Assembly: GCA_002197995.1 (NCBI GenBank)
Contig: NGZR01000007.1
Coordinates: forward strand, 206,399 to 270,398
DNA: 64,000 nt
Reading direction: 5' to 3'
From: Gaeumannomyces sp. JS-464
Taxonomy: Eukaryota > Ascomycota > Sordariomycetes > Magnaporthales > Magnaporthaceae
Shown here: positions 39,999-63,349 of the stretch, piece by piece
How positions within the stretch are numbered: the first letter of the stretch is position 1
Layout of the letters: every line of letters begins with the position of its first letter
Translations under genes and position numbers: made by a program
Notes under the pieces: generated by a model
Database searches by the model: none
Seen by the model: the letters and a program-made list of their open reading frames with translations, nothing else
Told to the model about the DNA's origin: nothing

Positions 39999-42814
39999 AT
40001 GAGGTGAGTTCAGGTTTGCGCAGCATTTTGTCTTGGCGGAATCTAGATACCGCCTCCCGGCCTGCCCTCCGCTCCTTGCTAACGCTGCCCACCCTTCTAG
40101 TTCCCCGCTGAGAAGCAACTCGAACTCTGCAAACCGCGGCCTGTCCGCCGCGGCGGGCGGGAGCCGGAAACGAGCCAGGTCCGGCGCTGGCGACGATGGC
40201 ATCTCTTCGATCGCGGCGGCTTCGAGCCCGCCTATCCCCTCCTCTCCCCCCGCCTTCAATATGGCGCATGGGGCAGATGACAATGACGACATCGAGGAGG
40301 ACGCCGAGATCCAGGACGACATCGAAGACCTCGACGAGATGGCCGAGGATGATGTGGACCTCTTCGGGGAGGGCTTCGAGGGGGATTATAAGGACAGGGA
40401 AAACGACGAGTATGAGCGTATTGACATCGACGACGAGGCCGACTACGACGCCATGAGCCTTGGCGACAGGAGGCGCCTCGAAGCCCAGCTAAACCGCAGG
40501 GACCGCGAGGTCGCCCGCCGCCAGCGCATCCCTGCCGCCTTCCTGCCTGGCGAAGACGAGGATGGCGACATCGACCTCACGGCTCAGCCGCGCCGGCGCC
40601 GACACCGGTATGATGAGGACCTGGACGAGGGACATGGATGCCGACATCATGGACGAGGAGCTCTCGCTCGAGGCTCTGCAGGACGTCAAGGCGTCTAGCT
40701 TGACCGAGTGGGTTTCGCAGCCGTCTGTCCAGCGCACCATCAAACGCGAGTTCAAAGCCTTCCTCACAGAGTACACGGACGAGCACGGCTCCTCGGTCTA
40801 TGGAAGCCGCATTCGCACGCTCGGCGAGATCAACGCCGAGTCCCTGGAAGTCTCGTACGACCACCTGTCGGCGTCCAAGGCTATTCTAGCCTACTTCCTT
40901 GCCAACGCCCCGGCCGAGATGCTCAAGCTCTTCGACGAGGTGGCCATGGATGTCGTCCTCCTACACTACCCCGACTACGAGCGCATCCACTCGGAGATTC
41001 ACGTCCGCATCTTCGACCTTCCAGTCCACTACACTCTCCGCCAGCTCCGCCAATCGCATCTCAACTGCCTGGTCCGCGTCAGCGGCGTCGTCACCCGGCG
41101 CACTGGCGTCTTCCCCCAGCTCAAGTATGTCAAGGTTGACTGCACCAAGTGCGGTGTCACCCTCGGCCCGTTCCAGCAGGAGTCCAACGTTGAGGTCAAG
41201 GTCACATACTGCCAGAACTGCCAATCTCGTGGCCCGTTCACGCTCAATTCGGAGAAGACGGTGTACCGCAACTACCAGAAACTGACGCTGCAGGAGTCCC
41301 CGGTACCGTTCCTGCTGGTCGTCTTCCGCGACACAGGGATATCGTGCTTCTGTGGGACCTGATCGACAAGGCCAAGCCTGGTGAGGAGATTGAGGTCACG
41401 GGCGTGTACAGGAACAACTACGACGCGCAGCTGAACAACCGCAACGGCTTCCCCGTTTTTGCCACCATCCTGGAGGCCAACAACATTGTCAAGGCCCACG
41501 ATCAGCTGGCTGGCTTCCGCATGACTGAGGAAGACGAGCAGCAGATCCGGAAACTGTCCAAGGACCCGCAGATCGTGGACAAGATCGTCAACTCGATCGC
41601 CCCCAGCATCTACGGACACACCGACATCAAAACCGCCGTCGCCTTGTCGTTGTTTGGCGGTGTCGCCAAGACAGCCAAGGGCAAGCACCACGTTCGTGGT
41701 GACATTAACGTGCTGGTTCTGGGAGATCCGGGAACGGCCAAGTCCCAGATTCTCAAGTATGCCGAGAAGACTGCGCACCGGGCTGTCTTTGCTACGGGCC
41801 AGGGCGCCAGTGCAGTCGGTCTCACGGCGAGCGTGCGACGGGATCCCCTGACGAGCGAGTGGACGTTGGAGGGCGGTGCTCTGGTGCTTGCCGACAAGGG
41901 CACTTGCTTGATCGACGAGTTCGACAAGATGAACGACCAAGATCGGACATCAATCCACGAGGCTATGGAGCAGCAGACCATCTCCATCTCAAAGGCCGGC
42001 ATTGTGACCACGCTGCAAGCCAGGTGTGGTATCATAGCAGCGGCGAACCCGATAGGAGGGCGCTACAACTCGACCATCCCGTTCTCGGCCAACGTCGAAC
42101 TGACCGAGCCCATCCTGTCGCGTTTCGACATTCTATGTGTTGTGCGCGACACGGTCGATCCGGCCGAGGACGAGCGACTGGCGCGCTTCATTGTTGGTTC
42201 CCACAGCCGCAGCCACCCGTCGTCGTCCGAGACGCAGGGTGGGGGTGGCTCGATGGAGGTCGAGCACGACTCGGAGCAGACCGAGACACAGGCCTCGGAC
42301 GGGCGGGACAAAGAGGGCGAGATTCCTCAGGACCTGCTGCGCAAGTACATCAAGTATGCTCGTGAGAGGTGTTCGCCCAAGCTGTACCACATGGACGAGG
42401 ACAAGGTCGCACGACTCTTCTCCGACATGCGCCGGGAGTCGAAGGCGACTGGCGCCTACCCAATCACTGTAAGTTTTGGAAGCCGGCCTGAAAGTGGCTA
42501 CTCTACTATTCCCCACGGAAACATGAATCCTAACAGCAGACTCCAATCAACAGGTGCGTCATTTGGAAGCCATCATCCGGATCAGCGAGGCCTTCTGCCG
42601 TATGCGGCTGTCCGAGTACTGCTCGGCGCAGGACATTGACCGGGCCATCGCCGTCACGGTCGAGTCGTTTGTAGGTAGCCAGAAGGTTAGCTGCAAGAAG
42701 GCATTGGCTCGGGCCTTTGCCAAGTACACGCTGGCACGGCCTGGAGCCGGGGCTGGTCGCCGAGTTGGTGCTGGCCGTGGCAAGGGGAGGGTCACTGCGA
42801 CAGCCAGCGCGTAA
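39999..42814 (+). CDS. mcm2: DNA replication licensing factor MCM2
   Basis: Subunit of the MCM2-7 replicative helicase. Exon 1 is only 5 nt (ATGAG, 39999-40003); exon 2 is 40101-42468 and exon 3 is 42554-42814. The first residues ([13 protein letters not shown]) and the Asp/Glu-rich N-terminus are typical of fungal MCM2. A C4 zinc finger is present (CTKCG ... CQNC, about 41140-41225). The AAA+ core has Walker [10 protein letters not shown], Walker B LIDEFDKM and arginine finger SRFDIL. The segment [19 protein letters not shown] and the winged-helix end ([14 protein letters not shown]) are MCM2-like. One extra G in GGG at 40629-40631 and one missing C in CCCC at 41298-41301 cancel out; the corrected product is 877 residues. 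An essential gene carrying two shifts argues for assembly error rather than loss. Confidence 0.95.
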
Positions 42815-44071: not shown

Positions 44072-46718
44072 ATGGCTCAGATCGACGTTGAGGATGTGCT
44101 GAAGAAGCTCACGCTCACCGAGAAGGTTGAGCTCCTTTCGGGTAGGTGGTGGCCCTTATCAAGTCACCCCAAGGGAGCAATCTGCTGACAGCAGCACCAA
44201 AAGGTATCGATTTCTGGCACACCAGGCCAGTCCACAGACTAGGCGTGCCATCGCTGCGGCTATCCGACGGGCCCAATGGCGTGCGCGGCACCAAATTCTT
44301 CAACAGCGTCAGGGCGGCCTGTTTCCCATGCGGCACAGCGATGGGCGCAACCTTCAACTTGCCGCTGCTGGAGGAGGCCGGCAAGACCATGGGTGCCGAC
44401 GCCAAGACCAAAAGCGCGCACGCCATCCTGGGGCCGACCATCAACATCCAGCGCTCGCCCCTGGGTGGCCGCGGCTTCGAGTCGCTCAGCGAGGACCCGG
44501 TCGTGGCCGGTCTCGGCGCCGCGGCGCTGATTCGCGGCATCCAGAGCACGGGCGTCCAGGCCACGGTCAAGCACTTTGTGTGCAACGACCAGGAGCACCG
44601 CCGCAACGCCTGCCAGAGCATCCTGACGGACCGCGCCCTGCGCGAGATCTACGCGCTCGCCTTCCAGCTGGCCGTGCGCGACGGGCACCCGGCCGCCATC
44701 ATGACGGGCTACAACGGCGTCAACGGCACCTACTGCAGCGAGAGCAACGAGCTGCTCGAGAAGCTGCTGCGCGGCGAGTGGGGCTGGGACGGCCTCGTCA
44801 TGAGCGACTGGTACGGCACCTACAGCACCACCGATGCCGCCCTCGCGGGGCTGGACCTCGAGATGCCGGGCCCGCCAAAGTTCCGCGGCGAGCTGCTCAA
44901 GTTCAACGTCGCCACCGACAAGGTCCGCGAGCACATCCTGGACGAGCGCGTCCGCGCCGTCCTCAAGTTCGTTAACAAGTGCGCCGCCGCGGGCGTCAAG
45001 GAGAACGGGCCCGAGACCACGGACCTCAACACCCCTGAGACGGCCGCGTTCCTGCGCCGCATCGGCAACGAGTCGCTGGTGCTGCTCAAGAACGACAACG
45101 GCGTCCTGCCCCTGAAGAAGAACAAGAAGACGGTCGTCATCGGCCCCAACGCCAAGATCGCGACGTACCACGGCGGCGGCTCGGCCTCACTCTCGGCCTT
45201 CTACGCCGTCACCCCCTTCGACGGCATCAAGGAGAAGCTCGAGAGCGCGCCCGAGTATGCCATCGGGTCGTACTCACACAAGATGCTGCCGCTGCTGGGC
45301 ATGTCCACCGTCACGGCCAAAGGCGAGCCCGGCATGACGATGCGCGTCTACAACGAGCCGCCCATGGCGTCGCATCGCGAGATGACGGACGAGTACACCT
45401 TCACCAAGACAGAGTTCTTCTTTGTCGACTACTACAACAAGAAGCTGCGTTCAAACCTGTGGTACGCCGACTTTGAGGGCTTCATGGTCGCTGAGGCGGA
45501 CGAAGAGTGGGAGTTTGGCGTTGTCGTGCAGGGCACCGCCAACCTATACATCAACGGCGAGCGTGAGTTTTCCATTCTAAACCAGCCCCTCGTGTCACGC
45601 ACAGAGTATACGCTGACATCTTGACACAAAATCAAGTCGTCGTCGACAACACCACTCACCAGCGCCAGGGTACCGCCTTTTTCGGGACCGGCACCGTGGA
45701 GGAGAAGGGCAGGTACAAGCTGTCCAGGGGCCAGAAGTACCATTTCAAAGTCCAGTTCGGCAGCGCCCCGACCTCCAAGCTCTCTACCGAGAGCGTCCTG
45801 ATCGGCCAGGGCTCCATGCGCGTGGGCGGCTGCAAGGTCATCGACGCGGTCCAGGAGATCCGGCGGGCGGCGGAGTTGGCCAGGGGTGCGGACCAGGTCA
45901 TCGTGTGCGCAGGCCTCAACGCGGACTGGGAGACGGAGGGCATGGACCGCCAGGGCATGGACCTGCCGCCGCCCATGGACGAGCTCATCTCGGCCGTCGC
46001 GGCAGCCAACCCGCGCACAGTCGTCGTGATGCAGTCGGGCACGCCCGTGCACATGCCGTGGATCCGCGACGTCGCGTCCGTCGTGCAGGCCTGGTACGGC
46101 GGCAACGAGACGGGCAACGTCATCGCCGACGTGCTCTTCGGCGACGCCAACCCCAGCGGCAAGCTGCCCCTGTCCTTCCCCGTCCGCTGCCGCGATAATC
46201 CGGCCTTCCTCAACTACCGCGCCGAGGGGGCGCGTGTCCTGTACGGCGAGGACGTCTACGTCGGCTACCGCTACTACGAGTTCGCCGACCGCGACGTCCT
46301 CTTCCCCTTCGGCCACGGCCTGAGCTACACCACCTTTGCGCTCAGCGGGCTCGAGGTGCGCGCCGCCGAAGGCCACCGCGTGACGGTCGAGGTCAACGTG
46401 GCTAACACGGGCGGCGTCAGGGGCGCCCAGGTCGTGCAGGTCTACGTCGCGCCCAAGCAGGCGGCCAAGGTGAACCGCCCGCTCAAGGAGCTCAAGGGCT
46501 TCGCCAAGGTCGACCTGGCGGCGGGCGAGACCAGGCGCGCGACGGTCGAGCTGGACGCCAGGTACGCGGCCAGCTACTGGGACGAGGACCGCGGCAAGTG
46601 GTGCGCCGAGAAGGGCGACTACGAGGTCGTCGTCAGCGACAGCAGCGCCGCCGTCGAGGGCAAGACGCTCAGGGGCTCCTTTACGATTCCTGAGACGTTC
46701 TGGTGGAGCGGAATCTAG
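44072..46718 (+). CDS. GH3 beta-glucosidase with PA14 domain, intracellular type
   Basis: Exons 44072-44141, 44204-45562 and 45637-46718 give 836 residues with no frameshift. The start MAQIDVEDVLKKLTLTEKVE is the usual beginning of fungal bglH/bglI-type enzymes; no signal peptide is present, so the enzyme is probably intracellular. The N-terminal GH3 barrel shows RLSDGPNGVRG, KHFVCNDQEHRR and GLVMSDWYGTYS, whose Asp is the expected nucleophile. The second GH3 sandwich is interrupted by a PA14 insert at about residues 395-560 (FTKTEFFFVDYYNK to GTANLYINGE). The C-terminus is a fibronectin-III-like domain (VNVANTGGVRGAQVVQVYV). It should cleave terminal beta-linked glucose from cello-oligosaccharides or aryl-glucosides. 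In-frame ATGs exist just upstream (44028, 44073 region), but 44072 has the best context (CACCATGG). Confidence 0.92.
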
Positions 46719-49477: not shown

Positions 49478-50020
49478 CTAATAGCCGCACGCACAGGCCA
49501 CGGGGATTTCGACTGGTACCACCGAAAATTTAAGCACGACGACGATAACCCGTGCCGCTGTGGGAGAAATAAGTCTCCCTCCCACCCTGTATTTTGCAAG
49601 CTGGCTAAAGTAACGGAAGACAAGTAGCTTATAGCAGACCCCTCCCCAGCTTTTAACAGGCCCGGGTATTGGAAACGGCTGCTTTAAAAGCCCGCCCTTT
49701 TTGCCTCGTTCGTTGAGGTTACTAACTACTTTACTATTGCCAGACGACTTATATCGATTTGGAAAGTTGTCCGCGAACCAAGCGTTCCGGGCGTCCCGGG
49801 CCATCTTCCGGGCTAAAGCTTCAACGCCAGCCACTGTTGGTTTGGCGTGTTGGGGTATTGGGAGGGCCGTGCCTAACTTTGCTTCGGCGTCGGCTTCCTC
49901 GTTCCCGGGGATTCCCATGTGGCCTGGGGACCAGCGGACGTGCACCTGATGCCTGTCCATAAGGCGATGGACCTCTTTAAAGGCCTTGGAGCGCCCAGAC
50001 GAGCGCCCACCATGAACCCA
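49478..50020 (-). mobile_element. 3' fragment of a LINE-like retrotransposon (RNase H domain)
   Basis: On the minus strand the translation contains HVRWSPGHMGIPGNEEADAE, the hallmark C-terminal motif of retroelement RNase H (His and Asp of the active site in a GHxGxxGNExAD pattern). It is preceded by SKAFKEVHRLMDRHQ. Downstream, the product continues through a Lys/Gly-rich linker to a Cys-containing end near 49478, then the CT/GA microsatellite. No reverse transcriptase or endonuclease part was found in the window, so the element is truncated at its 5' side. Tad/MGL-like non-LTR elements of ascomycetes carry this RNase H type. Confidence 0.7.
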
Positions 50021-50783
50021 GTTGTCGACGTTTACTCACCACAAGGACAGGGGGCCCCGCGCCGCGCGCCGCGCAACAGAGGCTGGGTGGCCATCAAAAT
50101 CTGCGTCAAGAACGAAGAGGACCGCGAAGCCCTGGTTTTGCCCCACCTCCAAACCGCCGGCCCATTCGGCGGGTTAACACACTCAATGCCTGCTGGGAGG
50201 TGGGGGAAAAGACGTCGGGGGAGGCGAGAAGGAGGGGGTGTAGGATGGGTCCGGGCTAAGCTTACTGCGCCGCGTCGTCGGCACCATCGCCGTGGTCGCG
50301 CGCCAGCCATACCGCGGAAAAACTGCCGTGGCCGGGCTTGAACTGGGGCCGTTGGCAACGGCATATTGCCGTCGCCAGCGCCGTTGGCGGGCGTGGTGTT
50401 GGTATTGGATCGCTGGATTGGCGGGTGTTAAGGATTTGTATGCAATTTGGCAGTGTGCACTAACAGCGCAATGCCAAGAATTGGTGCGTTCGAGGAAGGT
50501 TGAGGGCGGGCTGGTGCCCGGCACTTCTGTGGCTATGGCTCTAGGAGGAAATGCCTCGAAGGGGAAAGGCGAGCGCAATGCTACTATTATTTCACCCTGC
50601 AGGCGGCAACGAGAAAGAAAAAAGCTTCGCGATCTTGCATGTAAAAACCAGTCGCACCGACGTGAACGTGGACTATAACCTCATTAGAGAACACGAGAAC
50701 AAAGCACACAACTTCCCAGTCCCAAACAAGCCCCCAACTCCCAGGCATCATCAATCCTTGCTGCTCGATTGAAATCAAACGGG
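50021..50783. other. Region between the repeat island and the PKS gene
   Basis: A minus-strand open frame at 50183-50578 is Pro/Arg/Ser-rich without a recognisable domain. The region may be further retroelement debris plus the 3' UTR of the PKS gene. Confidence 0.4.
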
Positions 50784-53700
50784 CTAAACCGTAACACAAA
50801 GAACTAGAGGGCGGACATCATCCGGGGGAGGTAGACGACTATGACCCGTTCTTCTCCCATTCTCGGCAGCTAGCTTCATCAGACCGTCGGCGGCATGCTG
50901 GCCCAGCGCGTCCAGGGACCCCATGCCCAGCATTTCTAGCACGGTGATGTCGAAGGCAAAGACTTGCTTCCACCACGCGCGCAGCTCCAGCGCGACGAGC
51001 GAGTCGAGCCCCAGGTCCACGAGCGACCACGACGTGTTGAGCTCCTCCTTAGGCTTGAGCAGCAGGTCGAACAGCTTCCTGCCGATCTCGAGTGCGAGCA
51101 GCTTGGCCGTCTCGGCCGTCTTGAGCACCGCCGGGTCCACCCTAGCCCCGGCCAGGAACGACTTGAGCGTCTCGTTGGACGCGGACGCGGACCCGTCGGC
51201 CCCGCCGCCCGCCGCGTTGTGGTACGCCGCCATGCGCCGGTCCCGCCGCCAGACGGCGCGGTTGGCCGGGCTCGAAATGGGGATTGACGAGCCCAGGCCC
51301 AGGACGAAGGTGTTGGCATGCGCGTGCGCGACCTGCGACTCGGGCTGAGAATGCTCTTCCTTCTTCTCCTGCTTCGCCGGTTTCGGCGGCCGCGAACGGG
51401 CGAGCATGGCCACCGCCATGGCGTCCAGGAGCTCCTGCTCCGTGATGCCCTTGAACCCGGTCGTCTTCATTCTTCCGATGAGGCCCTGCGTCTCCGCGAT
51501 GAACCCGACATCCTCTACCGCACCGATGTCGACCACGGACGCGGCCAGTCCCAGCCCGTTGCGCCACTGCGCGAACGCGTCCAGGAAAGTGTTGCCGCTG
51601 GCGTAGTTTGCCTGTCCCGGGTTCCCGATCACGCCCGAGAGCGAGCTGAAGAGCACCATAAAATCAAGATCGGCGCCCGCCGTGGCCTCGTGCAGGTTCC
51701 ACGTACCCTTGACCTTAGGCTCCGTCGCGGCCTTCCACTCGGCAAACGTCATTTTGGAGAAGTTCTCGTCGCGCAGCACCATGGACATCTGCACCACCCC
51801 CTTGAGCGGCCGGGCGGCGGCGCCCACGGCTCGCCTCACGTCCTCGAGGGCGCAGACATCCCCGGGCACCAGCCGCACCTTGCAGCCCATGCTGCGCAGC
51901 TCGGCGGCGAACGCGTCGTCCCTGGGGCCGGCGCCGGCACTCCGGGACAGGAAAAGCAGCTCACGCGCGCCGTGCTCGACCATCCAAGTGGATATGGCGC
52001 GGCCCAGGCCGCCGAGGCCGCCGACGAGGAGGTACGAGGCGTCGCTGTTGAAGGTGACGGGCCGGGCCTGCTTGGTCGTCTCGAAGGCGATGTCGCTGTC
52101 CCTCTTTTCCCAGCCTCCTGACACTCTTGGTTCCGGCTGGTTATTATGGGGGATCGAGACCCCCACACGGCCGATATGTTGTCCCTTCTGCATAAAGCGG
52201 AACGCATCTTGGGTTTGCGACGCCGGGAATATTTTGGTCGGCCGCACCGGGGTGGTTTTGCCGTCGACGTAATACTGCAGAGTGTCAAGGATAAGCTTCC
52301 TTAGCAGGACCGGCTTTTTCCACAGCTGATCGATGTCGATGCAGCAGTAGCTACGGTTCGCCAGGAAGGGGTTCATATCGAGCTTCCCCCCGCCGATCAG
52401 GTCGCGTTTCCCGATCTCAACCAGAATCCCGAATTCGGCAACGCAGGACCAGGTAGCGTGCAGCAGTTCGCCGGAAAGAGAGTTGAGGATGATGTCGATG
52501 CCTGCGCCGCCGGTTTCGCGTATGATGCCGTCCACAAATGACTTGTCCCGCGAGTTGAATATCCTGTTCCTCGGGATATTGTAATTTTCCATCAGGAATT
52601 TGACCTTCTCCTCGTTGCCTACCGTGCAGTAGAGCTCCGCGCCGATCATCTGGCAGACCTGGACAGCCGCCAGGCCGACGCCGCCGCATGCACTGTGGAT
52701 CAGCGCGGTCTGGCCCTTGGAGATGCGGCCGACGTTTACGAGCCCATGGAGCGCCGTGACATACGGCATTAGCATCGACGCCGCCTCGTCAAAGCTGAGA
52801 TCGTCGGGGATGCGCGTGCAGAAAATGGTAGGAGTGGTGATGTAGGTGGAGTAGGCCTGCTTTTTCAGGCAGAAGACGCGGTCGCCCACGGCCAGCTCCT
52901 GCGGGTCGACACCATCTCCAACGCGAGTGATGATGCCGGCGGCCTCGAGACCAAACTGACGAATAGGCAGTTCGACGACTCCCAAGGCGACCAGGATATC
53001 CTATATTGCGGTTTAATGTCAGTTATGTTCAGTATGAGGTAGGAAAAAAAGGCGCAGACGTACCCTGAAGTTGAGACCAGCCGAATGGACCTGTACTTCG
53101 ACTTCGTGCGGCTGCGGCTCCTCCCTCGGCATTCGGACCCAGTGCAAGCTTTTGACCCGGCCCGGCGTGGCCACGTCGAGGATAGCCTTCTCCTCTGGCG
53201 TCTCGACGAGGAGCTCATCGCGCAGTGCGAAGGGGTAGAAGCGGCCCACGTGGACGCGACCGTCACGGATCACCCACTCGAAATCCGGGTTAAGCGTGTC
53301 GGCGTCATCATCACCAGCATCGCCCTCGCGTGTGCCGCCACCCCTCGCTTGGAACTTGCCGAGAATATCGACAATTCTCTTAGCCGTCGCGGCGTCGTCG
53401 AAGCCGTCGACCTCACACGTGGCAAAGTCGGCGAGCAGCTCGGACCGCGCCGTCCGCGCCAGGCCGAAGACCTGGCCGTATCGTGGGTCACGACAGCTGA
53501 GGTGGGAGCTGTGCGTGATCCAGAAGATGCCCCGGCCGTCTTCAAGCCTGTGGATGAGGTCTTTGAGCGCCTGGAAGCGCGTCTCGTCCATCGACTCGAG
53601 GAACGGCTCTTGCAGGTCCAGCAAGGAGACGACGTCCGATCCAGGGTCTGGGAGACCGTCAAAGAGCCTGCATATCGTCACTTCGTAGCCTCGCTTCTCG

Positions 53701-56700
53701 AGCTGTGCCAGAATCTGCTGCTCAGCTGCGGTGTCAATCTGGTCACTAGCATCCAGCTGTTGTCTTCTCCCGCAGAGCACCGAGATCTTCTTGCTGGTGG
53801 GTCGTTTCCTGAATGACCCATGTCGTATAACCATGGTGGCCGTCAGCTGGTGCGGTGCCTCAGCGTCCAGAATTGAACCCTCGAGCTCGCCGAGCCCGGC
53901 AGCATCCAATTCGGCTTTCCACCTCTCGAGCCCCACGTACGGCTCCTGTCCCCGCCCGTCATCCTCTCGGGCTCCTAGCCACCACGTGGGCAGCACGCCT
54001 AGCACATAGTTAATCCATTTCGAAGACGAAGACGGACAGAGTTCCCGCATGAGCAGCCGGCCGCCCGGCCGCAGCAGTTTCTTGACGTTGGCCAGGCTCG
54101 AATGCAGGTGGTTTGTGGCATGGATCGCGTTGCTGGCGATGATCAGATCGTAGCGGCGGCTCTCCTCAAGCCATCCCTGCTCCGCGAGATCCTGACCGAT
54201 GTCCAGAGTGGCGTACTCCATGTTGGGGAAGAGCTCCTCGTGATCCTTGCCGGAGATGAAGCCCGTCGACGTGAACGTGTACTTGGCGCAGAGGACGGAG
54301 CCGTCTTCGCGCGTGAGCGCCTTGATTATGTCTCGAGCCGCCGAGCCTTTTCCGGTCCCGATCTCGAGAACTCGGAGGTTTGGTTTCGAGTGACCTAGAG
54401 CTCTGATAAACGGAATTATGTCGCAGTGGTCCATATACGCATACATGTCTGCTAGCGTTTTGGCCCCAACGACGTCCTCCAGGGTTTCACCCGAGAGCAA
54501 CCTGTCCATCCCACTGCAAACATTGTGGATGGCAGTAGCGGCAGCCGCCGCCGATGTCTCCAAAAGGCGGGCTAGCAGCTGCTTGATCCGCTCTGATAGC
54601 GTCTCGTTGTCGAGGCTCTTAAGGATGGAAGCCAGGATCGCTACCGCCGACTTGGACTGCGACAACAGCCAGCTGGCGTACCTTTGCAGGTGAGGTGCCT
54701 TTGTCTCGGTGTCCGCGCAGTAGCATCGACTCCTCTTGGAGGAGAGCAGGCAGAGCTGGCCGAGCTCCTCGAGCAGACGCAGGCACTCGGTACGCTCCGG
54801 AGAAGGGGAGCCGATGAGGTCCCTAACGTCCAGGAAGTCAAGATCCAGGGCCCATTCGTACCTGGCGGCCGCGTGTGTGTCCAGCACCTCGCTCGACAGT
54901 GCACCGTCTGCGAGCGACATCCTGAGTCCGCTGACCTCGAGGACTGTCCTTCCGTCGTCGTCCGACGTGCAGCGGCCACCACCGACGACCGAGTGGTTGC
55001 TCGAAAGGCTCGCCGAGACGCTTGTCACCATGTTGCTGGCGCATTGGGAGATGCTGATCCTGTCGATGCTGGTTGGGAGCCAGTTCTTGGTCTTGCGCAT
55101 CCGTCCGCTCACAGCGGCGGCGCCGAGGATCTGTATCGTCGCGTCGATGACAGTGGGGTGGATGTGGTAGTTTGCTTCGTCCCCCTGCCTGCCGTTGATT
55201 ACGCGCCCAATGGCCATCCCGTCATTGTTGGTCGAGGTCTCGATGCTTTCAAGAGTCTGGAAGCATGGACCCAGATCCAGTCCACCCTTGGCCATGTTTT
55301 CGTAGTATTTTCTGGCACTTAGCTTGCGAGGAAGAGCCTGGGGTTTCTGAAGAGCCGGAGTTGTACCATTCGGGTTGTCGTCAGAGCCGGTGGCAGGGCC
55401 CGCGAGCGCCGAGATCTCGCCGGTGCAGTGCTTGGTCCACAGATGGCCATTGTAAGAGGCGACCGTGAACTCCCACCAGGGGCTGTTGAGCGAATTGGTC
55501 AACCGGTGCGGCCGGAAAGACGTTATCATCTCGGTAGGCTTGCCCTCGTTCAGAACCAGAGCCATGCTAACTCTGATGTTGCGGATGCTGAATCCATCAC
55601 TGGTCTCGGCCACCTGTCTGACCGCCTCACCCGCCAGCGCGACATACCCCGCAAAGGGAAAGACAATATCCTCTCCAACCTTATGGTCACGCACCCAGGG
55701 CACATTCGAAAGATGGAACATGTTGCGCCAGGCAGGCTCAAGATCGGTGCTTTCGGGCAGGTTGACACCCAGAAGATCGTGGTAAGGAAATTTACGGTGA
55801 CGCCACTCCCGGCAGACTCGTGGCTCATACCAGTGGCTGCTCTCGTGGTTCCAAGGGTACCTTGGAAGGTCGGGAAGGCAAGAGCCAGTAGGGAACAGCG
55901 CGTGGAGATCGATGTCGGCCTTGAGCGAATGCAGTTTCCCGACAGCGGTGAGGAAAGAAGCAATGCAGTTCTGGCTACGAGCCATGGCCGAAACATAAGG
56001 AGCCTGAGAGGATGCCTGCGTGAAGATCTGTCTGAGGGGCCCTGCGAGAGCCGAATGGGGACCGATCTCCAAGAACACCGGATTCTTGCCGACAACATCG
56101 TGGTTAAGGATGCTAGTAACTGCCTCACGGAAGCGAACTACACGATTTGGGTTAGTGGATGTCAAGTGTAAAAGGCGTACATCGACGTAGACACATACCC
56201 GGAGACTGGAGATTGTCACGCCAGTACTCAGCGCCAAGGTTGCGCTCCTTGGTGAGGAGTTTTCCAGTGACGCTGGAGAAGAAGAGCGTCGTCGGAAGCG
56301 GGTCCTTTGCGGCCACTGAAGGGGCGATCAAAGAGAGGTACTGCTCGCCAATCTCAGCCATGTGGTAAGAGTGATAAGCCTTGTCGACCTGAAGCAGCCT
56401 CGCGAGCACATCTGGGCGTGTCTTCTTAACGTCCTCGACCACCGTCCTAACTGCATCAGCGTCGCCAGAGATGGTCACGCTCCGCGGCGAGTTGTCGCAG
56501 GCAATCGTAACCTTATCAATCAGGTGGCCCTCGGTGTCCTCCCAGCTCATCCCGATTGCCGCCATGGCGCCCTCCCGCTGCTGAAGGTTAGCGACGGCGC
56601 CGCGGTGGTGCGCGACCAGGATGGCTTCCGGCGCCGCGAGGGCCCCCGCGGCATATGCGGCTGCGATCTCGCCGCTGGAATGGCCGACGACGGCGCTAGG

Positions 56701-58810
56701 CACGATCCCGAGGAATCTCAGGGTGTCGACCAGGGCGATCTGCACAGCGGTGCAGAGCGGCTGGGAGAGCTCTGCCGAGGAGAGGCGACTCGTCTTCGCC
56801 GGCCTCTTGAGCTCCTCCTCGATCGAGTAGCTTGCGCCGTGCAGGTGGCGGTCGAGGGCCTTAATGCTGGCCCGGAAAGTCTCGTTGGATTGCAGGAGCT
56901 CCCTGCCCATCTGCGGCCACTGGGCACCCTGGCCCGTGAAAACCATGACTATATCCGGCTTTTGGGCGGTCTTGAGGTTCACGGGCGTCGAGACGCTGTC
57001 GATCACCCCGGAGGCGATGGCGAAGGCACGGTAAGACAGGTGCTCTCTCCTAACGCCCAGTGTATACGCCAGGTCGGGGACCTTGTCCGGGTTTTTCTCG
57101 ACCCAGACCTTATAGTTTTCAATCATTCTCTCGAGCGACTTGCTAGAGTTGGCCGTGTACAACAGAAGCTGCGGGGTTGCCTCGCCAAAGCCAAACTCGA
57201 TCGGCTTTGCTGCAGGCGCCGCGTTAAATGTCGCCGCCGATTCCAAGATTACATGGGCATTTGCGCCGCCCACGCCGAACGAGTTGAGACTGATGCGTTC
57301 CAGCCGATCCCTTGGCCAGGGCGTCGGCTCCAGAGGCACGGTGAGTTTGGCCTCCTTGAAAGGAATGTTGGGGTTCGGCGTTTTGAACCTGATATTGGGC
57401 GGGATGATGCGGTTTTCGAGCGCCTTGACCATTTTGATCAGAGACACAAGGCCCGACGCGCCTTCGGTATGGCCCATGTTTGGCTTGACGGATCCGATGT
57501 ATACGCCCTTTTCCCCGAACACGCGAGCAACGGCTTTGGCCTCGATAGGATCGCCAGTCGGCGTGCCGGTCCCGTGACATTCGACCATAGCCGTTTTGGA
57601 ATAGTTACTGATCCCGGCCAGCTGGTACGCCCTCCGTATAAGTGCCTCCTGCGCATCTGTGCTCGGCTGCGAAAGCCCCGGCGTTTTGCCGTCGACGTTG
57701 TGCGATGTCGCTCTGATAACTGCCCGGACGGGGTTGCCATCGCGGATGGCATCCGCCAGTGGCTTGACGTATATGGCGGTCGCCGCCTCGCCGCGGGCGT
57801 ACCCGTTGGCCTCGGCGGAGAAGGAGTGGCAGGCGCCGTCCTTGGAGAGGATGCCCTGCTCGGTCATGGCCGCCGTCATGCTAGGGCCCAGGATCAAATT
57901 TACGCCACCGACGAGGGCGCCTTCGCAGTCGCCCCTTGAAATGGCGGCGCATGCCTCGTTAAGACACACCAATGCCGCGGAGCAGCCGGTGCGGATTGTC
58001 ATGCTCGGGCCCCTGATGTCGAACTCGTACGACAGCCGATTGGAGATGACGAAATCCCCCGTTCCAACAATTCGGTGCATCCCCCACTGCTGTGGCTCTT
58101 TGGCAAACATTTCAACCCAATCCTCTCCAAAATTGCCTATATAGCATCCGATAGTCTTGCCCCTCCAGTCGGTCACGCCAGCGTCCTCGAAGCACTCCCT
58201 GGACACCTCGAGCATAATGCGCTGCTGGGGGTCGGCGCGTTCGACCTCGGTCCGCGGCAGGGTGAAAAAGGACGTATCCAAAGCGCCCAGGTCAACACTC
58301 CCATCGAGGAAGCATCCGTACTCGGTAGAGATCGTGCCGGGCTTGGGCGTTGCGGAGTAGTACGACGAGATGTTATACCGCGACTCTGGAACCCGACCCC
58401 GGGCGTTCTTCTTGGCCAGGACGAACTCCCAGAGGTCCTGAGGGACTCCAGTCCGCCAGGGAGTCTGCAGGCCATGCCGCAGATCGCGATGGGGATCATG
58501 CCATCGCTACTGGCATTGCTGATCTGGCTCTGGTTGTGACTGTGGGAGTTGCCGGCTCCAACTCCATTTGTCGAGGCTCCGTGACCGTTCAAGCCGTTGT
58601 CGATTGGACACTAGCCGGGTGGTGTCCATCGACCCTTTCCGTTCCCTGGCCGTTCGTAGCCACGTACGGGCTGCTTGTTGACGTGCCGTTGAGGTGTGGT
58701 GTTGGGCCATGTCCGTTCATGCCGATTGGCCCGCGTCCATGATCATGGCCATTGAGCGCAGTGCCATCATCGCCATTCGTAGTGCTCGTAAACTCGGCAT
58801 GGGGAGCCAT
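50784..58810 (-). CDS. Highly reducing iterative type I polyketide synthase (KS-AT-DH-MT-ER-KR-ACP)
   Basis: Exons 58810-56199, 56137-53064 and 53000-50784 (introns 61 and 63 nt); two missing bases near 58600 and at GGG 58442-58444 bring it to 2634 residues. After an Asn/Gly/His-rich leader of about 90 residues come: KS (active Cys in RTGCSAAL; His in ECHGTGTPTGD and NMGHTEGASG); AT (GHSSGEIAAAYAAGAL); DH (WVRDHKVGEDIVFPFAGY); C-methyltransferase (VLEIGTGKGSA); ER (SACGGVGLAAVQ); KR (LLVGGLGGLGRAI, FSSLSGVIGNPGQANYASG); ACP (DLGLDSLVALEL). All reductive motifs are intact, so it should make a reduced, C-methylated acyl chain from malonyl-CoA. It ends after the ACP with no thioesterase or reductase, so another protein must release the product. 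The neighbouring oxoamine synthase is the obvious candidate. A TATA-like element lies near 58951-58958. The exact polyketide is unknown. Confidence 0.95.
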
Positions 58811-59955
58811 TGCGCTGGGGTTGAAGCCTTGGCCGGATGGAGCGAAAAGGCTGTTGGGCAGGTATCAAGATGATGAGACTGGAGCGCTGCAGCTAGGCTC
58901 CTGTTGAAGGCTCGGATTCAATCTATCTTATCTGGTACTGATGGCCTTCATATTATAACCAGTTGCCCCGCAAGCGTCTTCCACCACGCGGCTACCTGTT
59001 CCAACGTGGCAAATATACCTACGTACCTAGTAGGTACACGGGACAGGTGTCCTTGGATGGCCTTGACCTCATTCTGGATGGATTTGATACCATCCTTCTC
59101 TTCTGACTGGTACTAGATTTCGACATCGGGCTCGGAGTCCAGACTTCTGGCCTTGTTGGCCTCGGCGCCCGCGGCGTACCATACGGCCCGAGACTGCACA
59201 GACGACCGATGTAAGACGGAGGCGGGGGACGGAAGATAGAAGACGAGGGAAACACTGTTGTCGCGCTGAAGCCTGATTCCGGGCCATGGGTTCCGGCCCG
59301 AGGCTGCCTGTTTACTGGACGGGATAAGGATGGGTAATGGGTGGTCCCAGCGTTCGGAGCCCGTCACCCGTCGGACGGGAGACCGAACCAGGTTCCTAAG
59401 GGGGTGCCATGTATCGGGCTTCAGCGCCGACCCAGTCAACACGTTGGCTGGCAGCCAGTTGCCCGCCCGAGAGTTCGTTCGTGTGCCCAATACATCCGTC
59501 CCATGGTCGGGAACCCAAGCCTGTGGGTGACGGTGGCGGCTGAGTATCCACTTGGACGCGTCGGACCGCCCCCGGGATGGGCGGGCATCAGCTCCTCCGC
59601 GTAACCATAGCCCACCGACGGCTCCTAGGAAGAATAGGCAGAGCGATGGAGAGACAGCGGTCGCGGTAACAGATCCGTTCTCTTCAGGTGACGCGATAAT
59701 GGAAACGGTGGTTGAGGGCTTAGACCGCCCAACAGCAGAACACTGGCCTGGGGCACCATGAAAAAACTGCCGTGAAATCCGCTGATGGCCCAATGTAAAA
59801 ATGGTGGTTTGTCACGTGGCACCTGGCTTCCGGTCTACCAGCTCCTTGCGCGAGTCATGTTCATGATAGGAATCACATGATGCGGCAGTTAATTAACCAG
59901 CCACATTTGATCAATCTCGTTCTGGTAACCCAAGTCCGCCTAAATAAAACTGCAC
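58811..59955. other. PKS promoter and spacer to the SDR gene
   Basis: 1.1 kb upstream of the PKS start. It includes a TATA-like element (58951-58958) and the palindromic motif at 59023-59037. No separate gene is supported; open frames on both strands at 59113-59822 lack domains. Confidence 0.55.
59023..59037. promoter_or_regulatory. Palindromic motif GTACCTAGTAGGTAC in the PKS promoter
   Basis: A near-perfect inverted repeat about 215 bases upstream of the PKS start codon. Almost the same motif occurs at 61609-61623 in the promoter shared by the other two cluster genes. It could be an operator for a shared regulator. Similar TAGGTA words occur elsewhere in the window, so the evidence is modest. 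Confidence 0.4.
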
Positions 59956-61313
59956 CTAAGTTGGTAGGTCCTGCGGCGGCAGATCCCATCCTCTCCTAAA
60001 CTCCTCTCCGTCCAGTCTGGTCATGCGCTCCCACCTCCGCCTTAAAACAGGCATGACGAGCCACCCCATCACCGGCCCCATCAGCGCGTCGAAGATTCCC
60101 CACCCCCTCTTGGGCGAAGGACCGGCCATATTGGCGAAAAGGGCCGAGGCGGCGGCGGAGTCCTCGCAGATGATGAAGTCGCCCCGGTCGACCGCGGCGA
60201 TGACGAGCGCGGCGACCTCGGCCGAGGACGGGAATTTGGCCTCGAGCTCGCGCATCGTGCCCAGGTCGGTCCCCTGGATCCGCTTAGTCAGCGGCGTCTT
60301 GGTCGCCTGCTCGAGCCGGAAGCCGGGGGAGACGAAGTCGGCGGGGAAGGCGCAGTGAATCGAGTATGTCGATGCCTGGCTGCAGTACCGAAGGACCTCC
60401 ATCCGTAGCGTGTCCGCCAAGGCACGGACGGCGCATTTGGCCGCTGTATTTCAAATGCGTCTCAGTGAGCCTTCGTCCCGGCTTTCTGTCATCCATGTCC
60501 CACCCGAATAGGTTGTATCGTGGGCGTTAGGGGTTCTTGGCTTACGAGTGTAAGCGATGGAGCCTGGCAAGCCCAGGAATGCCGCTGCGCTGTTGATGAA
60601 GACGATCTGGCGGAGCCTGTGAGGGCGCGCAGGAGCCCCGGCGGCGGTGGCTGCTTTGTCGTCACCGATCCAGATGTCCAACACGGACTTGGCGGCAAAT
60701 GCAGCGGAGTAGTAGTTGTTTCTCATGCAGTCCTCAAGAGACTTGGCCCCAATGTCCAGAAGGAATCCGTTCTCGGCATGGTTTCCGCCCGCAACGCAGT
60801 ACAGTATGTCTGGAACTCTGGGCTGTGCCCGGAACGAGGCGTTGACCTGGTCGAGAAGATGGACGTCTCGACCGAGCCGTCAGCTCCTTGGCCTTCGAGT
60901 TTTTGACATCTCTCAACAAAAAAAAATGGGGGGAATTTGTTGGGTGCACACGTACCTGCTCGGCGTCGGCCATGTCAACCACGACAGTGTTGATCTCCTG
61001 GCGTTTGCTGGGGCATGTTGCAAGTATCTCATTCCTAGCTTCCTCCAAGGGACCCAGCTGCCGAGAGAACAGAGTGATGTCGGCGCCTTTTGATATCAAC
61101 CTGTTCTTAGTGCGACCGCTAGCATGATCTCTCGTGACACAGATATTGGGCTTATACCTCTGGCTGCTAGCCGCATAGAGATGGCTTTTCCTAATCCTCC
61201 AGAACCGCCCGTCACAAAGACGGTCTACTCCTCCTGTCAGCTCAAGACCCGAGACCAAGATGCAACCAAGATGAGAGCTTGTACCTTACCTTTCCACCTA
61301 GGTCCGGTCTCAT
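59956..61313 (-). CDS. 3-ketosphinganine-reductase-like short-chain dehydrogenase
   Basis: Five exons (61313-61290, 61224-61158, 61086-60956, 60846-60546, 60443-59956) sum to 1011 nt, 336 residues, with no frameshift. The N-terminal Rossmann motif TVFVTGGSGGLGKA binds NADPH. The central PDILYCVAGG and NNYYSAAF segments fit the SDR core. The catalytic set is Ser in VFINSAAAFLGLPG and YTPAK (Tyr and Lys, split by the last intron). The C-terminus has a hydrophobic stretch (WGIFDALMGPVMGWLVMPVL) that may anchor the enzyme to the ER, as in Tsc10/KDSR. The family reduces 3-ketodihydrosphingosine; related enzymes reduce the 3-ketone in fumonisin (Fum13) and sphingofungin pathways. Position next to the PKS and the oxoamine synthase suggests a pathway-specific copy rather than the housekeeping enzyme. 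Confidence 0.85.
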
Positions 61314-61784
61314 TCTTTCAGTGAGCTGAGGGGGCTTTACTACGCAAGCTCCAACCGTGTAAGTCTGGGCGCGGCAGTGCTCTCATGGTGGCTTACACTA
61401 ACTGATATCGGAGGCTTAGTGTGCCAGTAGGTTATATATCCCCACCCCAGTTTTTCCAGTAGTAAATCATCGAAACCGCCGAGGCAAGCGCGGTCGAAGC
61501 CCGCGGCTTCTTTCGCACCAATGACTGCCCACCCTGACCGGGTTCCGGACCCGGCCTTCTGCTCCGAAGGCCACCCAAACATGCGACCATGGTATTTGCA
61601 TGTGTTAGGTACCTAGGTAGGTCACCGCGTCTTTTTAAGTGTCAGTCGCTTGCTCAACATCCGTTACCTATACAACTCTCACCGAAATTCGATTCAGTCG
61701 TATATGGTACCGTCATCGCATTCTTCCATCTGTCGAACGCGGTCTGCCTCCCATAACCTCAGCAGAATCTACTCAGCTCTCGCA
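61314..61784. promoter_or_regulatory. Shared divergent promoter of the SDR and oxoamine synthase genes
   Basis: 471 bases separate the two start codons. The region contains TATATAT at 61433-61439 and the motif at 61609-61623. Both genes are probably co-regulated from here. An in-frame upstream ATG at 61704 could add 27 residues to the oxoamine synthase. Confidence 0.65.
61609..61623. promoter_or_regulatory. GTACCTAGGTAGGTC motif in the shared promoter
   Basis: It differs from the PKS promoter motif by one inserted G and the final base pair context. It overlaps two palindromes, AGGTACCT (61607-61614) and CCTAGG (61612-61617). It lies 162 bases before the oxoamine synthase ATG and 296 bases before the SDR ATG. 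Confidence 0.4.
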
Positions 61785-63349
61785 ATGTCAGCTGCTCAGT
61801 TGCTATCAGACTGGATCAAGGGTCAGAAACTCCAGGGCCCCCAGATGAAAGATGCCCCAACATTCTACCGGAATCTGGAGGAGGCCCTCGACGTCCGCAG
61901 AGCCGACCACGCCATGTTCACGCGCACCAAGAGCGCGTGGAAGCTGGGGGCCGCCGTGGACTTCTGCTCTAACGACCTCCTCTCCCTCGGGTCCAGCGGT
62001 GCCATCCGGACGGCCTTCCTGGAGGAGCTGGCCAAGGACCCGTCCTTTAACCTTTACGCAGGCGGGTCGCGCCTGATGGATGGCAACTACGATTACATTG
62101 AGCAGGTCGAGCAGGAGGTCGCCAAATTCCACGGCGCCGAGACGGCGCTTATCGTTGGGTCCGGGTATGAGGCCAACGGGGCCATTTACGCCGCGATCCC
62201 GCGCCCCGGCGACGCCATCGTATACGACGAGCTCGTGCACGCCAGTACGCACGACGGCATGGCGCACTCGATGGCCATAACGCGAGTGCAGTTCCGCCAC
62301 AACGACGTCGACTCGCTGCGCGAAACCATCGCGTCTGTCGTGGACTCCCAACCTATGATCAGGGATGGGTCGCGCTCGATCCTCATCTCGGTCGAATCGC
62401 TGTACAGCATGGACGGGGACATTTGCCCCCTGGTGGAGATGCTTGAGGTCGCTAAGGAAATGTGCCCTAAGGGAAACGCCGTCTTCATCGTCGACGAGGC
62501 TCACGCAACCGGGATACTCGGGCCTAAAGGTGCGGGCTTGGTTAGAGCCTTGGGCGTCGAAAAGGAGGTCGCGGTTCGACTGCACACTTGTGGGAAAGCC
62601 TTAGCTTCCACTGGTGGTAAGTTTGAGTTTTGTGTCTTCCCGTGGACTATAAAAGGAGGGTTAGCTACCCAGTCTGTTGTGTTACGCGCTGACAGACAGG
62701 ATACTTGTATAGCCGTGATACTCGGGAACGCAACCGTGCGTGCCGCGCTCATGAACTTCGCGCGTTCCGTGATATACACCACGGCCCCATCGTACCCTAC
62801 GGTTGCAGGAATCCGCGCAGCTTACAATCTGATAAGCTCTGGTGCAACACAGAAGGTCAGTGCCCGTCTGCGAGCTTGTTAACCTCTGACTATTATGTAT
62901 CTTAACACTGGTTACAGGCGCAAAACAACGTCCAGCATCTGGTGAAGCACTTTTTCAAAAGAATCACCGAAAATCCAGTCTGGACCAAGGCCAACGACAT
63001 GGGCATCTTATCGATTCCCGTTATGGAAAACTGGGAATCGCGGGACTTCCACGCGCACATCGTGCCGGTTTGGACGCGGCAGCGCTACAACTGGTGGCTC
63101 GTCTTCCACCTGCAGCTGTCCGGCATATCCGCCTTTCCGATCGATTACCCAACAGTGCCCAAAGGCCAAAGTAGGATTCGGCTGATGATCCACGCGGGTA
63201 ACACGGACGAACAGGTTTCCATGCTGGCCGCCACCATCTGCAACTGGGCCCGCGAGATGATCGCCATCGAGGAGGGGGTCGTGGAGGGCGGCGGGAAGGT
63301 CCCCAAGGCGGCGCAGCAGGTCTACGCACTGATGGCCACCCACGCTTGA
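61785..63349 (+). CDS. PLP-dependent alpha-oxoamine synthase (AONS/SPT-like)
   Basis: Exons 61785-62616, 62713-62855 and 62918-63349 give 468 residues in exact phase. Fold type I motifs are clear: DFCSNDLLSLGSSG near the N-terminus, NLYAGGSRLMDGNYDYIEQ, the cofactor-binding DEAHATGILGPKGAG, and HTCGKALAST, whose Lys should form the Schiff base with PLP. The family condenses an acyl thioester with a small amino acid under decarboxylation (8-amino-7-oxononanoate synthase, serine palmitoyltransferase, ALA synthase). Here the acyl donor is probably the ACP-bound chain of the adjacent PKS. The Lys region (CGKA) is more like AONS than the TFTKSFG of serine palmitoyltransferase. A longer frame with a Ser/Arg-rich N-terminus opens upstream (61650 or 61704) and might encode a mitochondrial presequence; I prefer the ATG at 61785 (GCAATGT). 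Confidence 0.88.

What the first reader, a model, noticed from the sequence alone, without database searches (positions are those of the whole stretch)
50784..63349. Compact sphinganine-analogue-type gene cluster: reducing PKS + oxoamine synthase + ketosphinganine-reductase-like SDR
Three adjacent genes provide a full logic for an amino-polyol lipid. The seven-domain reducing PKS makes a C-methylated acyl chain, the PLP enzyme can condense it with an amino acid, and the SDR can reduce the 3-ketone. Seen directly: all catalytic motifs and gene order. Known: the same trio underlies the fumonisin and sphingofungin pathways. Inferred: the product here is a sphinganine analogue. The oxoamine synthase is stand-alone and AONS-like (CGKA lysine region), so this may be a distinct member with a different amino-acid donor.
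Basis: partly seen in the sequence, partly recalled or inferred. Interest (0 to 1): 0.92.

Follow-up and report, generated by a model that had tools for sequence, protein, structure and literature searches.

The report
Fungal sphingolipid-mimic gene cluster, sphingofungin type
A fungus carries a gene set for making a molecule that probably resembles a building block of its own membrane lipids; clusters of this kind are already known from many fungi, and this genome also holds a second version with different finishing enzymes.

Summary
The trio is real: a seven-domain reducing PKS, a ketosphinganine-reductase-like SDR and a stand-alone 468-aa alpha-oxoamine synthase (AOS) lie at 50784-63349. 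The cluster runs past the window's right edge, with P450, MFS, PhyH dioxygenase and transcription-factor genes. Its five enzyme types are those published for "SAM1" clusters; the A. fumigatus form is linked to sphingofungin. The AOS matches solved 9dos (labelled AONS) and 9pep (sphA) at E about 1e-219 and 1e-209. Separate genes exist for biotin AONS, Lcb2, ALAS and Tsc10, so AOS and SDR are not housekeeping. A second, diverged cluster lies on the same contig (1.81-1.83 Mb), with a fatty-acid-hydroxylase and a transferase-family gene and no P450 match. The PKS frame is broken near the KS start; essential genes (MCM2, chaperonins) show such breaks too, so assembly error is likelier than decay, though some other PKS frames here are unbroken. 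The AOS has His-Ala-Ser where 9dos has Phe and 9pep Leu: a donor other than aminomalonate is plausible but untested. Product and expression are unknown. Verdict: new member of a known kind.

The parts
50784..58810 (-). Highly reducing PKS gene, KS-AT-DH-MT-ER-KR-ACP, in open pieces 56152-58506, 53019-56327 and 50784-53000; ATG proposed at 58810; frame broken near the KS start
   Evidence: ORFs; Pfam; frames at the N-terminus; best-scoring named KS-AT match Coccidioides immitis PKS, 71% over 94% (P0121)
59956..61313 (-). Ketosphinganine-reductase-like SDR, 336 aa, exons 61313-61290, 61224-61158, 61086-60956, 60846-60546, 60443-59956
   Evidence: Spliced with GT-AG sites; adh_short 1.8e-21; PDB 8jat Tsc10 E 3.5e-19; best-scoring homologue 72%, Hypoxylon trugodes
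61314..61784 (.). Divergent intergenic region (471 bases) between SDR and AOS start codons, presumably a shared promoter
   Evidence: Coordinates; promoter function inferred; the same divergent order is seen in the second cluster
61785..63349 (+). Stand-alone alpha-oxoamine synthase, 468 aa, exons 61785-62616, 62713-62855, 62918-63349, SphA family
   Evidence: PDB 9dos E 1.5e-219 and 9pep (sphA) E 1.1e-209; homologues; tree

Best explanation
A SAM1-type (sphingofungin-like) cluster. Shown here: gene content, domain order, family of AOS and SDR, their separateness from the housekeeping genes, and AOS-SDR linkage in other genera. Inferred from characterised relatives: the PKS builds a reduced, C-methylated acyl chain on its ACP and has no thioesterase domain. 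The AOS releases the chain by PLP-dependent decarboxylative condensation with an amino acid, giving a 2-amino-3-ketone. The SDR reduces the ketone to the alcohol. The P450 and PhyH dioxygenase hydroxylate the chain, the MFS protein exports the product and the transcription factor regulates the set. The product would be a sphinganine analogue that acts on sphingolipid synthesis; AOS and SDR may also top up the fungus's own sphinganine, as reported for SphA and SphF.
For: Domains. AOS is a SphA relative, 62.7-97.5% identical to 45 fungal AOS rows and 41.3% to this genome's biotin AONS over residues 1-277 (tree). The biotin AONS itself reaches only 9.2e-64 with 9dos. SDR is Tsc10-like but distinct from the genome's own Tsc10. 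Published SAM1 enzymes: PKS, aminotransferase, SDR, dioxygenase, P450 (PMC7376913). dN/dS between the two clusters: AOS exon 1 0.13, SDR exons 4 and 5 0.19 and 0.35, PKS pieces 0.12-0.19. Dual role of SphA/SphF: PMC10936153, passages.
Against: No product, expression or enzyme data. The PKS frame is broken near the KS start, so a dead gene is not excluded. With NCBIfam the window AOS and the biotin AONS score alike against bioF (253.5 and 250.3 bits, both under the cut-off 426.45), so that model does not separate them. No Fum1, Fum8 or Alt reference sequence was in hand. The published donor prediction for SAM1 (alanine) and the reported donor of SphA (aminomalonate; serine with palmitoyl-CoA) disagree, so the head group is open. 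The MFS and transcription factor are named in the paper's figure legend for SAM1-SAM5 together; I did not see the figure.
Confidence: 0.86

Rival explanations
1. The AOS and SDR are housekeeping genes (biotin AONS or SPT, and Tsc10) that merely lie beside an unrelated PKS.
For: The AOS scores highest among NCBIfam models with bioF, below its cut-off (253.5 against 426.45 bits), about as high as the genome's biotin AONS (250.3); the SDR's nearest structure is Tsc10.
Against: A separate AONS lies at C12:684105-685808 beside an AAA_26 (BioD-family) and a Radical_SAM (BioB-like) ORF. Lcb2 is at C12:5.931 Mb (PDB 8c80 SPT2, 4.2e-125), ALAS at C30:1.492 Mb (8eim, 4.2e-78), Tsc10 at C1:12.125 Mb (8jat, 8.7e-27).
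Confidence: 0.02
2. The cluster is a decaying relic: the PKS is dead, and AOS plus SDR survive as an auxiliary sphinganine supply or resistance pair.
For: Frame break near the KS start. The second cluster's PKS, MFS and dioxygenase, and the end of its AOS, are split over several frames. Some other PKS matches in this genome lie in unbroken frames of 1510-2434 aa, and three PF00118 genes are near full length in one frame, so breaks are not everywhere. SphA and SphF can feed sphingolipid synthesis (PMC10936153).
Against: Breaks without intron room occur in MCM2 in this window and in at least three places in PF00118 chaperonin genes; PKS pieces show dN/dS 0.12-0.19 between the clusters, which averages over their history; P0123 is unbroken there.
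Confidence: 0.1
3. A fumonisin/AAL-type cluster proper (Fum1/Fum8/Fum13 orthologues).
For: Same three enzyme classes; one KS-AT match is labelled FUM1 (Colletotrichum shisoi, 54% over 60%).
Against: The AOS is 468 aa, whereas Fum8 has a residue 580; it matches 9pep sphA and shows the AONS-like signature of SAM1/SAM2 enzymes; seven gene types found here against a typical 16-gene FUM cluster in Fusarium. No Fum reference sequence was compared.
Confidence: 0.02

Closest known systems
SAM1-type clusters of Fusarium and other fungi (Kim et al. 2020, PMC7376913)
   Same: PKS, AONS-like aminotransferase, SDR, dioxygenase and P450; a serine in the GGSR motif
   Different: Species; gene order not compared; a second diverged cluster on the same contig; product unknown
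Sphingofungin cluster of Aspergillus fumigatus (PMC10936153, passages)
   Same: SphA-family AOS, SDR 63% identical to an A. fumigatus SDR, PKS without thioesterase, P450, MFS transporter
   Different: AOS has His-Ala-Ser and His-Asp-Gly where 9dos has His-Phe-Ser and 9pep His-Leu-Ser, both with His-Thr-Gly; no acyltransferase among the window cluster's genes; donor may differ
Mycosphaerella fijiensis PKS8-2 cluster (PMC4936691, passages)
   Same: PKS, ketosphinganine reductase, alpha-oxoamine synthase, MFS, transcription factor; its sphingolipid hydroxylase recalls the fatty-acid-hydroxylase gene of the second cluster here
   Different: The window cluster has a P450 and a dioxygenase; no sequence comparison with PKS8-2 was made

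Membership tests
SAM1-type sphinganine-analogue cluster | Highly reducing PKS with KS-AT-DH-MT-ER-KR-ACP and no thioesterase | tested here: met
   Pfam on the three open pieces; no thioesterase model at E 0.001
SAM1-type sphinganine-analogue cluster | AONS-like alpha-oxoamine synthase with Ser at the ALAS-83 position | tested here: met
   SphA family; GGSR motif, Ser95; that this Ser corresponds to ALAS-83 is recalled, not aligned here
SAM1-type sphinganine-analogue cluster | 3-ketosphinganine-reductase-like SDR | tested here: met
   PDB 8jat Tsc10 E 3.5e-19; TGxxxGxG and YxxxK
SAM1-type sphinganine-analogue cluster | One dioxygenase and one P450 besides the trio | tested here: met
   L009: P450 2.6e-56, PhyH 2.3e-29; stated for SAM1. 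MFS 5.8e-31 and Fungal_trans 2.2e-8 are also there, but whether SAM1 has them was not seen
SAM1-type sphinganine-analogue cluster | PKS inside the SAM1 PKS clade | tested here: inconclusive
   KS-AT 71% to a Coccidioides PKS, a genus named in the SAM1 PKS tree; no tree with SAM1 references
Sphingofungin cluster (SphA orthologue) | AOS with the active-site motif of 9dos/9pep | tested here: not met
   HASTHDG against HFSTHTG and HLSTHTG
Sphingofungin cluster (SphA orthologue) | Aminomalonate as donor | not testable with these tools
   Needs an enzyme assay
Fumonisin/AAL cluster | Fum8-type aminotransferase long enough to have residue 580 | tested here: not met
   Window AOS is 468 aa; Fum8 numbering from PMC12821873
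Any sphinganine-analogue cluster | Sphinganine analogue produced; genes co-expressed | not testable with these tools
   No expression or metabolite data

The most novel reading that the evidence does not exclude
One genome runs two ancient, diverged sphinganine-analogue clusters about 1.56 Mb apart on one contig. They share PKS, AOS, SDR, dioxygenase, MFS and regulator, but one finishes its product with a P450 and the other with a Sur2-like hydroxylase and an acyltransferase. Both AOS enzymes keep an AONS-like active site, so they may use alanine or serine rather than SphA's aminomalonate. The fungus would make two different variants and carry two spare SPT/ketoreductase pairs against self-poisoning.
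Probability: 0.35. Interest if true: 0.5.

Novelty: new member of a known kind. Interest (0 to 1): 0.36.

Why it matters
Sphinganine analogues include fumonisins, sphingofungins and myriocin, which act on sphingolipid enzymes. This pair of clusters offers a natural comparison of finishing steps and of donor choice in AOS enzymes close to SphA, whose structure is solved, so the role of the residue in the His-x-Ser motif (Ala here, Phe or Leu in 9dos and 9pep) becomes directly testable.

Tried and rejected
Housekeeping origin of AOS and SDR: rejected. Pseudogene reading of the PKS: not adopted. Frame breaks without intron room also occur in MCM2 (two) and in PF00118 chaperonin genes (at least three: C23:1547230, C23:4057383, C32:399908, 29 rows); by eye also in Lcb2, ALAS and Tsc10. 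Against this, three PF00118 genes are near full length in one frame and some other PKS matches lie in open frames of 1510-2434 aa.

RIP as cause: TpA/ApT 0.52 and 0.45 and (CpA+TpG)/(ApC+GpT) 1.20 and 1.23 in the two PKS genes (whole window 0.60 and 1.27; L026 1.01 and 1.02), no strong signature by thresholds that I recall. Recent duplication in this lineage: not supported, since AOS2 groups with a Chaetothyriales protein, Teratosphaeria and Claviceps, and AOS1 with an unnamed protein; the fork joining both lineages has support 90/83. A P450 in the second cluster: no tblastn match at E 1e-4 over the 50 kb fetched. Species identity: not established. Papers on the SphA structures: none among the 8 listed of 647.

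Limits of the counts: the AOS tree holds 45 of the 120 listed homologues (75 left out; one search found 5536 at E 0.001) plus three sequences of this genome, cut to AOS residues 1-277. One search covered only 52 AOS codons and 1 SDR codon, so these were redone (276; 89 and 151 codons); the dioxygenase piece gave 0.64 and was not followed up.

Full report
What is there. The window is C32:206399-270398 of a 53-Mb, 34-contig assembly; gene content is fungal. Six-frame reading and Pfam confirm a reducing PKS on the minus strand: KS and AT in 56152-58506, DH and MT in 53019-56327, ER, KR and ACP in 50784-53000. The SDR splices to 336 aa and the AOS to 468 aa with GT-AG introns. SDR and AOS are divergent, with 471 bases between their start codons.

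The cluster is larger than the finding. Reading the contig to the right (L009, L010) shows a P450 (window-equivalent about 64223-66126, in two overlapping frames), an MFS protein (66821-68464), a PhyH dioxygenase on the minus strand (68745-69853) and a fungal transcription factor (from 72370); Pfam E-values are 2.6e-56, 5.8e-31, 2.3e-29 and 2.2e-8. To the left lie MCM2 and a GH3 enzyme.

What the enzymes are. Against solved structures the AOS finds two far ahead of the rest: 9dos (labelled AONS) at 1.5e-219 and 9pep (aminoacyl transferase sphA) at 1.1e-209; the next is 3.5e-42. The SDR finds only Tsc10, 8jat, at 3.5e-19 with the limit set at 1e-15. Named AOS homologues reach 84% (Cercophora scortea) and 82% (Hypoxylon trugodes, Pyrenochaeta) for the first 277 residues. 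The best-scoring SDR homologue is 72% (H. trugodes) and an A. fumigatus SDR is 63%. In 21 of 48 named AOS rows an SDR row has the same species and longest-contig length. In Annulohypoxylon sp. FPYF3050 (ABKA04_008797/008796) and Nemania bipapillata (ONZ43_g6089/g6088) the two tags are neighbours.

Not housekeeping. This genome has a separate AONS (C12:684105-685808; 41.3% over the compared region) beside an AAA_26 (BioD-family) and a Radical_SAM (BioB-like) ORF. It also has Lcb2 (C12:5.931 Mb; SPT2 structure 8c80, 4.2e-125), ALAS (C30:1.492 Mb; 8eim, 4.2e-78) and Tsc10 (C1:12.125 Mb; 8jat, 8.7e-27). The biotin AONS too has 9dos as its nearest structure, but at 9.2e-64, and it scores like the window AOS with the NCBIfam bioF model (250.3 and 253.5 bits, both under the cut-off).

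A second cluster. C32:1809535-1832730 holds TF, PKS, PhyH dioxygenase, MFS, a fatty-acid hydroxylase (Sur2-like by eye; PF04116 8e-10), a transferase-family protein (PF02458 7.5e-4, below its cut-off), SDR pieces (49-61%) and AOS (81% over its first part). No P450 match was found there. AOS2 groups with a Chaetothyriales protein (93%), Teratosphaeria and Claviceps, AOS1 with an unnamed protein (97.5%). Between the two clusters dN/dS is 0.13 for AOS exon 1, 0.19 and 0.35 for two SDR exons and 0.12-0.19 for three PKS pieces.

Is the PKS broken? The frame changes near the KS start at about 58460 with no room for an intron, and once more in 58590-58670. The unnamed protein P0123 is continuous there. 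MCM2 in this same window changes frame twice without intron room (MCM2_N 2-125 then 124-150; MCM_OB 2-86 then 86-124), and PF00118 chaperonin genes do so in at least three places. Essential genes cannot all be dead, so indel errors in the assembly are the simpler explanation. Against it, some other genes here are open over long stretches (PKS frames of 1510-2434 aa; three PF00118 genes). The break is no good evidence of decay, but decay is not excluded.

Donor. The AOS has GGSR, HASTHDG and CGKALAST (Ser95, Ala153, Lys271). Kim et al. predicted alanine for SAM1/SAM2 enzymes from a serine at the ALAS-83 position. SphA is reported to use aminomalonate with the polyketide, and serine with palmitoyl-CoA. 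9dos and the Aspergillus, Penicillium and Trichophyton rows have Phe in place of Ala153, 9pep and the Paecilomyces row Leu. A donor other than aminomalonate is therefore plausible but untested.

Known or new. Kim et al. 2020 (PMC7376913; read: parts 1-3 of 12, sections 8 and 9, passages) described SAM1-SAM5 clusters and SAM1-like clusters in other genera, including Hypoxylon and Metarhizium; 15 of 69 Fusarium species with a SAM cluster had two. They state PKS, aminotransferase, SDR, dioxygenase and P450 for SAM1. This locus fits that type. PMC10936153, PMC4936691 and PMC12821873 were read as passages only.

Noticed in passing
C32:1809535-1832730 (L021-L023): A second, diverged cluster of the same type on the same contig, with a fatty-acid-hydroxylase (Sur2-like) and a transferase-family gene and no P450 match.
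   Followed up: partly
40003-42639: MCM2 is split over three frames without intron room, a sign of indel errors in this assembly.
   Followed up: yes
49478-50035: RNase H-like ORF (PF00075 3.8e-6) beside the PKS 3' end, probably a retroelement remnant.
   Followed up: no
44146-46715: GH3 glycoside hydrolase with PA14 insert, left neighbour of the cluster.
   Followed up: no
L026:3566-6959 (C12:683566-686959): Biotin AONS gene beside AAA_26 (BioD-family) and Radical_SAM (BioB-like) ORFs.
   Followed up: partly
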